Positions 7,510 through 14,763 of a stretch of 61,644 bases of DNA are shown in pieces. The first letter of the stretch is position 1, and every line of letters begins with the position of its first letter. Location of the stretch: positions 1 through 61,644 of the forward strand of contig JAJPGU010000031.1 in assembly GCA_021325615.1 (NCBI GenBank), given 5' to 3'. The position numbers were made by a program, and so were the translations under genes. Source of the DNA: Nitrososphaerota archaeon. GTDB taxonomy: Archaea > Thermoproteota > Nitrososphaeria > Nitrososphaerales > Nitrosopumilaceae. The notes beneath the pieces are model-generated. The model did not search any database. It saw nothing but the letters and a program-made list of their open reading frames with translations, and was not told the DNA's origin.

Positions 7510-8808
7510 CTAGTATCCGGCGTTAGCCGTTGTGAGCTTGCGAGTCTTCAGGTCCACCGTGCACACATCCGAGGGCGATTTGGACCCAAGGCCTGAGGCA
7601 GTGTCGTGAAATTCTATGCTCATCAGATTGGATGTTACCACTATTCGCAGGTAACCGTAATACTTGTCAAAATATTTTTCAAAGACGTGGTCCCCTTCCT
7701 TTACTGGAGTCCTTATTGCGGAGGCGCCTCCGCTTGTGCGCTTGATGGGGGATACATTATGGCCCCCGTTCCCGGCAATGATGAAGGGAATCTCCTTTCC
7801 CCCTACCAGCCGCGTAAACCTCTGATAGTTGTGCGCGTGCCCTGAAAGAACCGCATGCGGGGCAAAACCCCCGGCATATCTTATGGCATCATCAATGTCT
7901 TTTAGCATTCTTGGGCTTGCACCATGTGTTGTACCGCCTGTAAAGGGTGGATGGTGGACTGCCAGTATGACTGCGCCGTCATAGTTCTCGTCATGAAGCT
8001 GCTTTAGCTGGCTTTTTAGAAAGTCCTTCTGGGCATCACTCACCCCAGCACGCTTGCCGCCCTCGCTTGATATGACCCCCGGGTCCTCAAGGATGTTGCT
8101 GTAGAGTCCAATGATTGTCACGTAGGGGGCGGAGAGTGTAAAGTATACGCCTGGCTGGGTCATTGTCGTCCTTGCAAGCCCTCCGGCATGTGGGGAATGC
8201 TCGGGCGATTCGGAACAAAAGTGCTCTTTGAAAGCTTCAAGGCTTTGCTCCGGATCATCGGTGTAAACAAGACCGTCGTGGTTCCCAGGGATTGCAAAAA
8301 TTGGCGCCATGTAGTTGCGGAAAGGCTCGTAAAACTGGTCATAATAATACTGGTTTTCGCCAAAACTGTATACCACGTCGCCTAGGTGAAAGAGGAACCT
8401 TGGCACATCGGCAGGGTCAGCCTCGGTAAAATCGCCCGCCATCTTGTCGGCAACAGTGTCCTCATTTTTTAGCTTGGCAATCGACTTGGCGTTGGCATAA
8501 TCAACCCCAGTGTCTCCCACCGCGTGGAATACTATCCTGCCTGCCCTTCTTATCTTCTGGATCTCGTCGTCGCTCAAGACATCGTCAAGCAGCATGACGG
8601 GGGGATCAATGCGCGGCTTGGGGACCGGCAAAGGCTTTTTGTCCGCGTCCTTGTAAAATGCCTCGTCGGGACGCTGGTCCTTGAAGCTGATGTCGTCAGG
8701 CTCAAACGAAGGCTCGCCAAAACAGCGGTTTGCGGGGCCGGACATCGGGGGGTTTTGCCGGGGACTGGACGCGGGGCGCGCTTTTTTGGATTTGATTTTC
8801 CTTGCCAT
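7510..8808 (-). CDS. Purple-acid-phosphatase-like metallophosphoesterase
   Basis: 432 residues. All five metal-binding blocks of the calcineurin/purple acid phosphatase fold appear in order: GDTG (about 98-101), GDVVY (143-147), GNHD (175-178), AVHH (about 283-286) and GHAHNYQR (about 323-330). They should hold a two-metal centre that hydrolyses phosphomonoesters or diesters. No signal peptide; the N-terminus is a basic, Pro-rich extension of about 70 residues, so it is probably cytosolic. Divergent from the thioredoxin-fold gene at 8911, with 102 bases between starts. Substrate unknown. Confidence 0.85.
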   Translation of the reverse strand: MARKIKSKKARPASSPRQNPPMSGPANRCFGEPSFEPDDISFKDQRPDEAFYKDADKKPLPVPKPRIDPPVMLLDDVLSDDEIQKIRRAGRIVFHAVGDTGVDYANAKSIAKLKNEDTVADKMAGDFTEADPADVPRFLFHLGDVVYSFGENQYYYDQFYEPFRNYMAPIFAIPGNHDGLVYTDDPEQSLEAFKEHFCSESPEHSPHAGGLARTTMTQPGVYFTLSAPYVTIIGLYSNILEDPGVISSEGGKRAGVSDAQKDFLKSQLKQLHDENYDGAVILAVHHPPFTGGTTHGASPRMLKDIDDAIRYAGGFAPHAVLSGHAHNYQRFTRLVGGKEIPFIIAGNGGHNVSPIKRTSGGASAIRTPVKEGDHVFEKYFDKYYGYLRIVVTSNLMSIEFHDTASGLGSKSPSDVCTVDLKTRKLTTANAGY

Positions 8809-9750: not shown

Positions 9751-10608
9751 ATGTCTAGGTTGTACGGGACATCGGATTTCATGCCAGGTATCATAGAGGA
9801 TGTCGATGTCTCGCGCCTAAAGCAGCCCGCCAATCCACTGCGCCTTACTTTTGAGGGGATCGAGGACCTTGCAAGTTCCATAAGCCAAAAGGGAATCCTA
9901 AACCCGCTAACGGTGAGGGCCAGGGATTCTGAAACCTTTGAAATTGTCGCCGGAACGAGGAGGTTCCGGGCGTGCAAGATGCTTGGCTGGCGGAAAATCC
10001 CCTGCCACATAGTAAACCTGGACGACAGGGAATCGTTTGTGGTATCCCTCATGGAGAATGTCCAGCGCCACTCCATCAGTGTATTGGAGGAGGGCAAGGC
10101 ATACAAGAGATACATCGATGACTTTGGGTGGGGGGGAATCACGGACCTTGCGGCAAATCTGGGGAAAAGCGTAAGCTATGTTACAAAAAAGGTACAGCTT
10201 TTGGACCTTCCGCAGTCCGTCCTGGACTCCATCAGGGACTCGGCCCTCAAGCCCAGTATAGCCGAAGAACTTTGCTCCGTAAAAGACAGGGAAAACCAGT
10301 CCATGTTGGCAGAAATAATCACAAAAAAGAATCTGTCTTTTAGGGGAAGTAGAACCCTCATAAAATCATACGGGGTGGACATGCAACGCATGAAAACAAA
10401 AAACGAGATCAAGACGGAAAAAATAATCAAAACTCTTGACAAGGGGATCACCGCTCTGCGCATTGCCATGAACAGGATATCGGAACTAATTGAGCGCAAT
10501 GAGGACAACGACTTTATTGTCAGGAAGCTGATGCATCACAAGAACTTGCTCCATGAGCAGATAGATGACATGATGAGGGAAAAAAGAAAAGCCGCCAGGG
10601 ACAGGTAG
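9751..10608 (+). CDS. parB: ParB-like chromosome partition / nucleoid protein
   Basis: 285 residues. The N-terminal ParB/Srx domain (about 15-110) holds the nucleotide-binding motifs GTRRFRA (68-74) and ENVQRHSIS (92-100); in bacterial ParB these bind CTP. A central helix-turn-helix (about 105-170) follows, then a long helical, Lys-rich C-terminus likely to dimerise. No ParA gene is nearby, as for many archaeal ParB-like proteins, so it may act in nucleoid organisation or gene regulation rather than partition. An 18-bp perfect palindrome sits 25 bases beyond its stop codon. Confidence 0.85.
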   Translation: MSRLYGTSDFMPGIIEDVDVSRLKQPANPLRLTFEGIEDLASSISQKGILNPLTVRARDSETFEIVAGTRRFRACKMLGWRKIPCHIVNLDDRESFVVSLMENVQRHSISVLEEGKAYKRYIDDFGWGGITDLAANLGKSVSYVTKKVQLLDLPQSVLDSIRDSALKPSIAEELCSVKDRENQSMLAEIITKKNLSFRGSRTLIKSYGVDMQRMKTKNEIKTEKIIKTLDKGITALRIAMNRISELIERNEDNDFIVRKLMHHKNLLHEQIDDMMREKRKAARDR

Positions 10609-10813: not shown

Positions 10814-10833
10814 TAAACATGACATCAACAGAC

Positions 10834-11745
10834 ATGGTAATAAAATTTGAAGATATCTCAAAGGCGATAGGAGATAAGAAAGCAAACTGGGTTGCGCAGG
10901 ACCATCCATTTTTGAAGTTGCCTGACAACGAACTTGTAAAACGCTTGGGAGTTAATGTGGACAAGGAGCAGCTCCAAGCCCGGATCAAGACGCCTCCGCC
11001 TGACATGGCAGGCCTCATGAATACCCTGGGAAGGAAGGAATACGAACTTATGATTCCGCCGCACCCATTTCCTTTCCCGCTGCCGCAGATAGTCGACTGG
11101 AGGAACCGGTTGGGAAGAAATAACGTAACATCAATCAAGGACCAGGGTGCATGCGGGTCATGCGTATCCTTCGGGACGACCGCAACACTAGAGTCGATGG
11201 TATCGATTGAGCACGACGCCATCTTCGACCTGTCTGAGGCGGAACTCCTGTTCTGTGGGGGAGGAAGCTGTGGAGGATGGTGGCCAGACTACGCCGTGAC
11301 CTATCTGTTAAACCGCGGCATTTCTCAGGAAAGCTGTTTCCCGTACCACGACCATAATATGGCATGCGCCACATGCAGCGAAAGGGACGGCGAGGCGATA
11401 AAGATAACGCAGCATGTTGTCCTGAACACCATTGCCGACCGGAAGAACTACATCAAGAACGTAGGGCCTGCCGTGTGCGTCTTTGCAGTATACGGGGACT
11501 TCTTCAGCTACCGTACCGGAGTCTACTCGCATGTGACCGGCGGCCTTGCAGGATACCATTGCGTGGAAGTGGTTGGATTCAACGACTTCCTAAAATGCTG
11601 GATATGCAAGAACAGCTGGGGGACCGGATGGGGAGAAAACGGGTTCTTCTGCATAGAATATGGCCAGTGCCAAATTGATCAATCGACTGACCCAAACGGT
11701 TTTCCATTCTGGGGAATCGCCGGAACAAAGTGGTTCAAGCCTTAG
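10834..11745 (+). CDS. Papain-like (C1A) cysteine protease, cytosolic
   Basis: 303 residues. The papain catalytic set is complete: Q104 and C110 (DQGACGSCVSFG), H242 (GYHCVEVVGFND) and N260 (CKNSWGTGWGENG). Residues 1-85 resemble a propeptide, and PQIVDWRNR (84-92) looks like a mature papain N-terminus, so it may be made as a zymogen. No signal peptide is visible. Unusually Cys-rich, with at least eleven Cys. The gene is followed after 68 bases by a chagasin-family inhibitor, the natural antagonist of this protease class, with a hairpin between them. C1 proteases are uncommon in archaea, which suggests acquisition by transfer. Start chosen from the TATA position. Confidence 0.88.
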   Translation: MVIKFEDISKAIGDKKANWVAQDHPFLKLPDNELVKRLGVNVDKEQLQARIKTPPPDMAGLMNTLGRKEYELMIPPHPFPFPLPQIVDWRNRLGRNNVTSIKDQGACGSCVSFGTTATLESMVSIEHDAIFDLSEAELLFCGGGSCGGWWPDYAVTYLLNRGISQESCFPYHDHNMACATCSERDGEAIKITQHVVLNTIADRKNYIKNVGPAVCVFAVYGDFFSYRTGVYSHVTGGLAGYHCVEVVGFNDFLKCWICKNSWGTGWGENGFFCIEYGQCQIDQSTDPNGFPFWGIAGTKWFKP

Positions 11746-11756
11746 GACATACGGGG

Positions 11757-11800
11757 GGAGGGAAATAAAACGAGTAACCAATTACTCGTAAATACCCTCC
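11757..11800. promoter_or_regulatory. Nested hairpin between protease and inhibitor genes
   Basis: Inner arms ACGAGTAA / TTACTCGT (11770-11777, 11782-11789) with loop CCAA, and outer arms GGAGGG / CCCTCC (11757-11762, 11795-11800), form a long interrupted stem. In RNA it could limit read-through from the protease into the inhibitor or stabilise either end. In DNA the inner part could be an operator. Confidence 0.6.
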
Positions 11801-11813
11801 TTACGTATTCCAC

Positions 11814-12119
11814 ATGAGAATCATGAACGAGAAAATCCGCGCGCGGGTTGGCGAGACCTTCAAGATAAAATTGCCGGGAAACCCCACAACGGGGTTTCTC
11901 TGGATTGCCAAGGTTCTCTCGCCCGACAAGATAATTAGTCCACTGGACACGACCTGGGAAAACGAAGTGACACTTGCCGGTCAGCCCAGGACCCAAGTCT
12001 TAAATTTCAAAGCCTTGTCGGCAGGCAAGGCAGACCTAATCATTGAATACAAAAGACCGTGGGAGACGGACAACGTATTGGAAAAAAGGACGTTTACAAT
12101 CCACGTGGATCCAACATGA
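11814..12119 (+). CDS. Chagasin-family (I42) cysteine protease inhibitor
   Basis: 101 residues. It shows the three inhibitory loops of chagasin: NPTTGFLW (about 22-29), the glycine-containing middle loop after the Thr/Gln-rich strand, and YKRPWE (about 78-83). No signal peptide, so it should act in the cytosol like the protease gene before it. The family plugs the active-site cleft of papain-like enzymes. Pairing with a C1A protease gene suggests protection of the host from its own protease. The second ATG at 11823 is an alternative start. Confidence 0.88.
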   Translation: MRIMNEKIRARVGETFKIKLPGNPTTGFLWIAKVLSPDKIISPLDTTWENEVTLAGQPRTQVLNFKALSAGKADLIIEYKRPWETDNVLEKRTFTIHVDPT

Positions 12120-13690: not shown

Positions 13691-13771
13691 GTATCGGGTG
13701 GTTTATCCGATACTGTTTGATATCGGGTGAATTACCCGATATTATTTAATATCGGATAGCCATATCCGATA
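13691..13771. promoter_or_regulatory. Triple phased palindrome covering the fic promoter
   Basis: Three related inverted repeats have centres about 29 bp apart: GTATCGG...CCGATAC (13691-13713), ATATCGGGT-gaatt-ACCCGATAT (13720-13742) and TATCGGATA-gcca-TATCCGATA (13750-13771). A TATA-like element (TTATTTAATA, about 13742-13751) lies between the second and third. The start codon GTG 13774 follows two bases after the last arm. A protein bound here would block TFB/TBP and the leaderless start. Confidence 0.75.
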
Positions 13772-13773
13772 CC

Positions 13774-14763
13774 GTGCGAAGGCTGAACATGCCGTGGGCA
13801 CTCCATGAGCGCATTGTCGAAAAGAAGGCAAGGTACGGGAGGCTGCGGACTGGAATGTCACGAAAGGCCCTGGGAGACCTGATGGGGAGGATGGAGGCGG
13901 AATTTGTCTACAACAGCAACAAGATAGAGGGAAGCACGCTCACGCGGGGGGAGACTGATCTTGTGCTTCAGGGCGTAACGGTGGGGAGACGCCCGCTTTC
14001 AGGCATCATATCAAAGAGCCTTGACGACATCAGGGCTGCTGGAAACCATCCTGGCGCAATGGATCTCATAAGGAGGCTTGCCTTTGACGCCTCGCACAGG
14101 ATATCCGAGAGGGAGATAAGGTCGGTACACGGGCTGCTCATGAGGGGGATTGTCCCCGATGCGGGCGCCTACAGAACGGATGACAGGGCGGTCAGGGGCG
14201 CGGAATTTGTCCCGCCGCCGCCGTACGAGGTAGGACCCATGATGAAAAAACTGGCAGACTTTGTCAACTGCAACCCGGACGAGCTGACGCCTGTCGAGCT
14301 TGCGGCGCAGGCCCATTATGATCTTGCCTGGATACACCCCTTCAGCGACGGCAACGGCAGGACGGCAAGGCTGGTCATGAATTTCATCCTTTTGCGCAAT
14401 GGATATCCGTTTACAATAGTACGGGACGTGGAGAGAAAGACCTACCTCGGCGCGCTGCGCCGCATGGATACCGAAGGCGACATCGAGCCCTTTACCACCT
14501 ATGTAGCAAGGTGCGTCGAGCAGACGCTTGACATGTTCCTCCAGGAAACCGGCAGGCCTGACCTCCTTCCGCTTGGCAGGCTTGCCGGGAACACGCCTTA
14601 CAGCGCAGAATACCTCGGCCTGCTTGCAAGAAAGGGCAGGATTGACGCGGTAAAAAAAGGCAAGACCTGGATGTCTACAAGAAAGATAATTGCAGCCTAT
14701 GTGGCCCAGCAAAAGGGGAGGACGGGGACGCGGCCGGGCCGCGCCAAAACCCGGAGGAGGTAG
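13774..14763 (+). CDS. fic: Fic-domain protein (probable AMP-transferase)
   Basis: 329 residues. The Fic motif HPFSDGNGRTAR starts at H188 and is complete, so it should transfer AMP or another nucleotide-derived group from a cofactor to a hydroxyl side chain. An inhibitory-helix motif SNKIEG (S48-E52) lies N-terminal to the Fic core, as in class II Fic proteins that are autoinhibited. The C-terminal ~70 residues look like a winged-helix region (YSAEYLGLLARKGRIDAVKK) with a very basic tail, as in Fic proteins that regulate themselves. GTG 13774 fits a leaderless start; ATG 13789 is the alternative. It sits directly behind three phased palindromes. Target unknown. Confidence 0.88.
   Translation: MRRLNMPWALHERIVEKKARYGRLRTGMSRKALGDLMGRMEAEFVYNSNKIEGSTLTRGETDLVLQGVTVGRRPLSGIISKSLDDIRAAGNHPGAMDLIRRLAFDASHRISEREIRSVHGLLMRGIVPDAGAYRTDDRAVRGAEFVPPPPYEVGPMMKKLADFVNCNPDELTPVELAAQAHYDLAWIHPFSDGNGRTARLVMNFILLRNGYPFTIVRDVERKTYLGALRRMDTEGDIEPFTTYVARCVEQTLDMFLQETGRPDLLPLGRLAGNTPYSAEYLGLLARKGRIDAVKKGKTWMSTRKIIAAYVAQQKGRTGTRPGRAKTRRR

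What the first reader, a model, noticed from the sequence alone, without database searches (positions are those of the whole stretch)
10834..12119. Intracellular papain-like protease paired with a chagasin-family inhibitor
The protease has all four catalytic residues, and the inhibitor has the NPTTGFLW and RPWE loops. Neither has a signal peptide, so both should act in the cytosol. A self-directed protease with a dedicated inhibitor could work as an immunity, dormancy or toxin-antitoxin-like module. This pairing is rarely noted in archaea.
Basis: partly seen in the sequence, partly recalled or inferred. Interest (0 to 1): 0.62.

Follow-up and report, generated by a model that had tools for sequence, protein, structure and literature searches.

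The report
Cytosolic cathepsin-like protease with dedicated inhibitor
This archaeon carries side-by-side genes for a cathepsin-like protease that has no export signal and for a chagasin-type inhibitor of such proteases, and this two-gene unit turns out to be conserved across many bacterial and archaeal phyla, which gives a testable answer to what such inhibitors do in microbes.

Summary
Window 10834-11745 encodes a C1A papain-family protease with Gln104, Cys110, His242 and Asn260 intact. 11814-12119 encodes an I42 (chagasin-family) inhibitor. They are the only C1 and I42 genes in the genome, 68 bp apart on one strand, and neither has a signal peptide. The pair is far from a local curiosity. 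Of 80 relatives in bacteria and archaea, 70 have an I42 gene within 2.5 kb, 64 of them downstream on the same strand. Most exceptions are contig ends, and one is a secreted form. No other neighbour family recurs widely. In methanogens and their relatives, proteases without a signal peptide are linked to I42 (3/3); secreted relatives are not (0/26). The protease is a zymogen: its N-terminal 80 residues match the cathepsin B propeptide. No congener has the pair, and its nearest relative is in a Nitrosospira bin, so it was acquired. Most likely the inhibitor is a cytosolic antidote that keeps a stored protease off until release, as staphostatin does for staphopain. The retained papain disulfide cysteines favour action outside the cytosol. 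The toxin-antitoxin or dormancy reading is not excluded but has no direct support. Inhibition itself is inferred; one of three inhibitory loops is degenerate.

The parts
10834..11745 (+). C1A papain-family protease (pro-cathepsin-B-like zymogen, no signal peptide); upstream alternative ATG at 10819
   Evidence: PF00112 E=2.8e-45; AF2 pLDDT 92.7; Foldseek best hits procathepsin B zymogens
10834..11073 (+). N-terminal pro-region, about 80 residues, cathepsin B-type propeptide (pattern L..AI....A.W.A..T..S.LS......LG)
   Evidence: conserved Trp19, Leu38, Gly39 in the family; relative L039 matches PF08127 Propeptide_C1 at E=0.001-0.002, below Pfam's curated cut-off; full-length structural match to procathepsin B
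11143..11166 (+). oxyanion Gln104 and catalytic Cys110 followed by Val111 (CGSCV, clade signature; CGSCW in secreted relatives)
11557..11613 (+). catalytic His242 and Asn260 (KNSWG motif)
   Evidence: invariant in 65 of 65
11745..11811 (.). intergenic imperfect inverted repeat folding as one long hairpin; core ACGAGTAA-CCAA-TTACTCGT at 11770-11789
   Evidence: MFE -34 kcal/mol, z -6.4; single copy in the genome and not found in the genus; GC-corrected z -4.1 among window segments
11814..12119 (+). I42 chagasin-family inhibitor, no signal peptide; alternative ATG at 11823
   Evidence: PF09394 E=5.6e-20; AF2 pLDDT 92.2; Foldseek best hits EhICP2 and chagasin
11880..11903 (+). inhibitory loop L2, NPTTGFLW
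   Evidence: sequence; motif defined in PMC2607524
11979..11990 (+). loop L4, expected GXGG, here GQPR (degenerate)
   Evidence: sequence against the motif in PMC2607524
12054..12065 (+). inhibitory loop L6, RPWE
   Evidence: sequence; PMC2607524

Best explanation
A two-gene zymogen-and-antidote unit. The protease is made in the cytosol as an inactive precursor with a cathepsin B-type propeptide and without a Sec signal. The co-encoded chagasin-type inhibitor binds any copy that matures too early and so protects the producing cell. The enzyme becomes harmful only when it parts from the inhibitor, most likely on cell lysis or by a non-Sec route, where it attacks external or competitor proteins. 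Shown: the two families, their catalytic and two of three inhibitory motifs, the zymogen architecture, absence of signal peptides, conserved linkage, and accessory acquisition. Inferred: binding of this inhibitor to this protease, protection of the cytosol, the release route and the target.
For: 70 of 80 relatives, from more than ten bacterial and archaeal phyla, have I42 within 2.5 kb (64 downstream on the same strand), and no I42 hit lies elsewhere in 883 kb of flanks. Of the 10 without, 7 are cut by a contig end close to the gene, one is secreted, two are real exceptions. I42 is the only widely recurrent neighbour. 25 of 27 genomes with the protease have an I42 somewhere. In the Halobacteriota sample, no-signal proteases are linked 3/3 and signal-bearing ones 0/26. 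Protease and inhibitor distances correlate (Mantel r 0.41, 0 of 2000 permutations). Zymogen fold. The papain disulfide pairs Cys107-Cys146 and Cys141-Cys178 are kept in 64 and 63 of 65, while signal-less xylellain-type proteases of the same class lack them. Relatives carry lectin-like DUF346 or FG-GAP modules. Precedent: staphopains are co-expressed with staphostatins that protect the producer (PMC8443034).
Against: No binding or activity data exist. Loop L4 of the inhibitor is degenerate. The window's inhibitor is only 28% identical to that of the nearest protease relative, whose protease is 57% identical, and does not group with it, so the two genes may have different histories here. No export route is identified; no contractile sheath gene was found in this genome. 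Disulfide cysteines may be an ancestral relic. Loss of the signal peptide is essentially one event on the tree, so the signal-versus-linkage contrast has almost no independent replicates. The window protein lacks the lectin-like module.
Confidence: 0.5

Rival explanations
1. Intracellular self-directed module: the protease acts inside the cell as a stress, dormancy or suicide protease and the inhibitor is its antitoxin.
For: No signal peptide on either protein; accessory, patchily distributed unit; a Deinococcus plasmid carries the unit directly upstream of a caspase-family gene, with a second one further down; DUF6345 proteins, one with caspase-like motifs, lie beside it in two loci.
Against: No PADLOC match; no recurrent sensor or activator; caspase linkage is an exception; papain disulfides retained; a few linked inhibitors look like lipoproteins, which would be outside the cytosol; rare on viruses (3 loci) and plasmids (4 records).
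Confidence: 0.25
2. Ordinary protein turnover: a cytosolic peptidase for peptide recycling with a tuning inhibitor.
For: Cytosolic location of both proteins; widespread small C1A peptidases in prokaryotes (PMC10380794).
Against: Accessory: found in one of 37 genomes of the genus; zymogen architecture and C-terminal lectin-like modules of relatives do not suit housekeeping turnover.
Confidence: 0.15
3. The inhibitor targets foreign (host or predator) cysteine proteases and its place beside the protease is incidental.
For: Bacterial chagasins were proposed to act on own or host proteases, and tested inhibition was of a host-type cathepsin (PMC2784779).
Against: Linkage in 70 of 80 relatives in otherwise unrelated contexts, and correlated divergence of the two proteins.
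Confidence: 0.05

Closest known systems
Staphopain-staphostatin (scpAB, sspBC) of Staphylococcus
   Same: Papain-fold cysteine protease made as a zymogen and co-expressed with an inhibitor that protects the producer (PMC8443034).
   Different: Protease family C47 with a Sec signal peptide and unrelated inhibitor families (I57, I58); restricted to staphylococci (own knowledge).
Chagasin-cruzipain and ICPs of protozoa
   Same: I42 inhibitor regulating an endogenous C1A protease; same fold and two of three inhibitory loops.
   Different: Genes not linked, protease secreted or lysosomal (own knowledge); window inhibitor has a degenerate L4 loop.
Cathepsin B zymogens
   Same: Propeptide and catalytic domain; procathepsin B structures are the best structural matches.
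   Different: No signal peptide; Val instead of Trp after the catalytic Cys; the best sequence match is procathepsin H.
Xylellain-type short C1 peptidases of Nitrososphaeria (GSCTANA motif)
   Same: Signal-less C1 proteases, three of them next to an I42 gene or remnant.
   Different: Distant subfamily without the papain disulfide cysteines; most are not linked to I42.
Bacillus IPI-Isp1
   Same: Intracellular protease with intracellular protein inhibitor (PMC3901451 abstract).
   Different: Serine protease (subtilisin) and an unrelated inhibitor family.

Membership tests
Peptidase family C1A (papain) | PF00112 domain above curated cut-off | tested here: met
   155.5 bits against 20.7
Peptidase family C1A (papain) | Gln-Cys-His-Asn catalytic set | tested here: met
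   Q104, C110, H242, N260; invariant in the family
Peptidase family C1A (papain) | protease activity | not testable with these tools
   needs assay
Cathepsin B-like zymogen | Propeptide_C1-type pro-region | tested here: inconclusive
   window itself has no PF08127 hit; one relative matches at E=0.001-0.002, below cut-off; full-length structural match to procathepsin B
Inhibitor family I42 (chagasin) | PF09394 domain above curated cut-off | tested here: met
   71.9 bits against 27.2; fold match to EhICP2 and chagasin
Inhibitor family I42 (chagasin) | loops NPTTG, GXGG, RPW/F | tested here: inconclusive
   NPTTG and RPW present, GXGG reads GQPR (sequence; motifs)
Inhibitor family I42 (chagasin) | inhibition of C1 proteases | not testable with these tools
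   needs assay
Type II toxin-antitoxin system | toxin harms own cell and is neutralised by the antitoxin | not testable with these tools
   needs expression test
Type II toxin-antitoxin system | frequent carriage on plasmids and phages | tested here: not met
   3 viral contigs, of which one has I42 beside it, and 4 plasmid records
Anti-phage defence system | match to a known defence protein | tested here: not met
   PADLOC no hit for either protein
Staphopain-staphostatin | inhibitor of staphostatin family and signal peptide on protease | tested here: not met
   inhibitor is I42; no N-terminal hydrophobic stretch on the protease (sequence; family)

The most novel reading that the evidence does not exclude
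A previously undescribed, horizontally spreading toxin-antidote class shared by Archaea and Bacteria, in which a cytosol-stored procathepsin-like protease is held by a dedicated chagasin and released to kill or digest competitors, or the cell itself under attack; protozoan chagasins would then descend from the antidotes of such microbial units.
Probability: 0.25. Interest if true: 0.8.

Novelty: new variant of a known kind. Interest (0 to 1): 0.56.

Why it matters
The natural target of prokaryotic chagasins has been left open between own and host proteases (PMC2784779). A conserved gene pair across many phyla names a concrete own target that can be tested with two small proteins. It would also show that Archaea and Bacteria keep cathepsin-type enzymes in the cytosol under a dedicated inhibitor, and offer a source for the chagasins of protozoan parasites.

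Tried and rejected
Export by an extracellular contractile injection system: sheath family PF04984 absent from this genome and present in 8 of 24 checked genomes; no sheath gene seen among neighbours. Defence-system membership: no PADLOC match. A conserved wider operon: no widely recurrent neighbour beyond I42, apart from a roughly 140-residue ORF between the two genes in many relatives which repeats the protease's C-terminal domain and is absent here. Syntenic empty site in congeners: flanking genes are conserved but lie hundreds of kb apart in the two closed congener genomes, so no clean empty site was found. Phylogenetically independent test of signal peptide against linkage: only two changes, no power. 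Known RNA family for the intergenic hairpin: no match at gathering score. The 2002 paper on chagasin-family conservation (PMC2373688) was not held.

Full report
Observation. The window encodes on the + strand a 303-residue C1A protease (10834-11745; an ATG at 10819 would add five residues) and, 68 bp on, a 101-residue I42 inhibitor (11814-12119). Pfam scores are 155.5 bits for PF00112 and 71.9 bits for PF09394, far above cut-offs. The catalytic Gln104, Cys110, His242 and Asn260 are intact and invariant in the family. The inhibitor has NPTTGFLW and RPWE, but the third loop motif GXGG (defined in PMC2607524) reads GQPR. Each gene is the only one of its family in the 1.83 Mb assembly. Neither N-terminus has a hydrophobic signal; this rests on hydropathy and reading, not on a trained signal-peptide predictor.

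Structure. The protease model (65-sequence alignment, pLDDT 92.7) matches zymogens of cathepsin B best (5fpw, 7e3e, 4n4z, 4i04, 1pbh), with alignments as long as the whole precursor. Mature cathepsin K covers less (TMq 0.59 against 0.76). The pro-region has the conserved pattern L..AI....A.W.A..T..S.LS......LG, and one relative hits PF08127 Propeptide_C1 weakly (E 0.001-0.002, below cut-off). The inhibitor model (pLDDT 92.2) matches EhICP2 and chagasin. So this is a zymogen plus a chagasin-fold inhibitor.

Conservation of the pair. A scan of GTDB representatives gave 80 relatives, most of them full length, including Nitrosospira, Nitrospira, Cyanobacteria, Chitinophaga and other Bacteroidota, Acidobacteria, Planctomycetes, Actinobacteria, Methanoculleus, Methanosaeta, Bathyarchaeota and Thermoplasmata. 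A home-made I42 profile found an I42 ORF within 2.5 kb in 70 of 80: 64 downstream on the same strand, 3 upstream, 3 on the other strand; no I42 hit lay elsewhere in 883 kb. Of the ten without, seven are cut by a contig end close to the gene and one (L111) carries a signal peptide and a secretion tail; only L055 and L060 are real exceptions. 25 of 27 such genomes have an I42 somewhere; the two without are the secreted case and a Bathyarchaeota bin. No other gene family recurs widely next to the pair, apart from an ORF of about 140 residues between the two genes in many relatives that repeats the protease's C-terminal domain. The window lacks it.

A control from within the family. In 247 Halobacteriota genomes (the phylum of Methanoculleus), C1 genes occur in 89 and I42 genes in 109. 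Three C1 genes without signal peptide and with the CGSCV signature (G318, G498, G543) have I42 just downstream. Of the best-scoring ones, the 26 with a signal peptide have none linked (Fisher P 3e-4). On the tree the signal-less CGSCV proteins form one clade of 68 rows (SH-aLRT 97), so signal loss is essentially one event and the contrast has almost no independent replicates. One signal-less protein, L122 (CGSCW, 677 residues), falls in the secreted clade without I42; its start may be mis-set. Protease and inhibitor distances over 70 pairs correlate (Spearman 0.41, 0 of 2000 permutations).

History here. The protease's nearest relative is that of a Nitrosospira bin (66% over the catalytic part), inside a 20-row clade that is otherwise bacterial. 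None of 36 congeners has the region; flanking genes are present but far apart. The unit was therefore acquired. The window's inhibitor does not group with the Nitrosospira one (28% identity), so joint transfer of both genes is likely but not shown. In the same class three distant xylellain-type C1 genes also lie beside I42 genes (G121 divergent; G182 convergent, the I42 there with an in-frame stop; G253 convergent), an independent sign that C1 proteases kept in the cytosol attract I42 genes.

Mechanism. Both proteins sit in the cytosol, the enzyme as a zymogen. Propeptides of this type come off by autocatalysis (established knowledge of cathepsins), so a second lock is useful; the inhibitor is that lock. 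What the enzyme does when unlocked is open. For action outside the cytosol: both papain disulfide pairs (Cys107-Cys146, Cys141-Cys178, by alignment to papain numbering from own knowledge) are kept in 64 and 63 of 65 relatives, whereas signal-less xylellain-type enzymes lack them; relatives carry DUF346 or FG-GAP modules; a few linked inhibitors look like lipoproteins. For action inside: no export route is known, no sheath gene in this genome, and one Deinococcus plasmid puts the unit next to caspase-family genes. I give 0.5 to antidote plus release, 0.25 to a self-directed module, 0.15 to ordinary turnover, 0.05 to foreign targets. That the two proteins are enzyme and cognate inhibitor I hold at about 0.9.

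Known or new. Families C1A and I42 are known, and staphopain-staphostatin shows the same logic with other families (PMC8443034). The 2023 phylogenomic survey of the papain family notes intracellular prokaryotic C1A and transfer to Archaea but does not mention chagasin (PMC10380794), and the searched library gave no paper on a C1A-I42 operon. That library is open-access only, so priority is not certain. I file it as a new variant of a known kind.

Noticed in passing
window 11745-11811: The whole gap between protease and inhibitor is an imperfect inverted repeat that folds as one long hairpin (-34 kcal/mol, z -6.4); single copy, absent from congeners. Could set the ratio of the two products.
   Followed up: partly
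window 13704-13758: An even stronger hairpin between the GAF regulator and the Fic gene (25-nt arms).
   Followed up: no
window 7510-8808 (-) and L158 1103-2458 (-): A calcineurin-like phosphoesterase of one family (48% identity) lies near the C1/I42 genes both here and in G121, although the C1 there is of another subfamily.
   Followed up: partly
window 13774-14763: Fic-domain protein similar to SoFic and PDC-S04 models of PADLOC, two genes downstream of the pair.
   Followed up: no
window 9751-10608: ParB/Noc-like protein directly upstream of the protease; only one congener (G218) gave a DNA match.
   Followed up: no
L171 4911-10759: Deinococcus aetherius plasmid: C1 peptidase, small ORF, I42, caspase-family protein, unknown, second caspase-family protein in a row.
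   Followed up: partly
L044 7165-8886, L046 1344-2312: DUF6345 proteins beside the protease; L044's has His and Cys motifs reminiscent of caspase-like peptidases.
   Followed up: no
L058 7573-7767 (-): Free-standing copy of the protease pro-region, possibly a propeptide-type inhibitor.
   Followed up: no
L098 6980-7441, and L063, L052 and others between protease and I42: A roughly 80-residue domain at the protease C-terminus is repeated in a separate ORF before the inhibitor; no Pfam match for the L098 ORF.
   Followed up: partly
L168 967-2089: A viral contig carries a C1 relative overlapping an I42 ORF.
   Followed up: no
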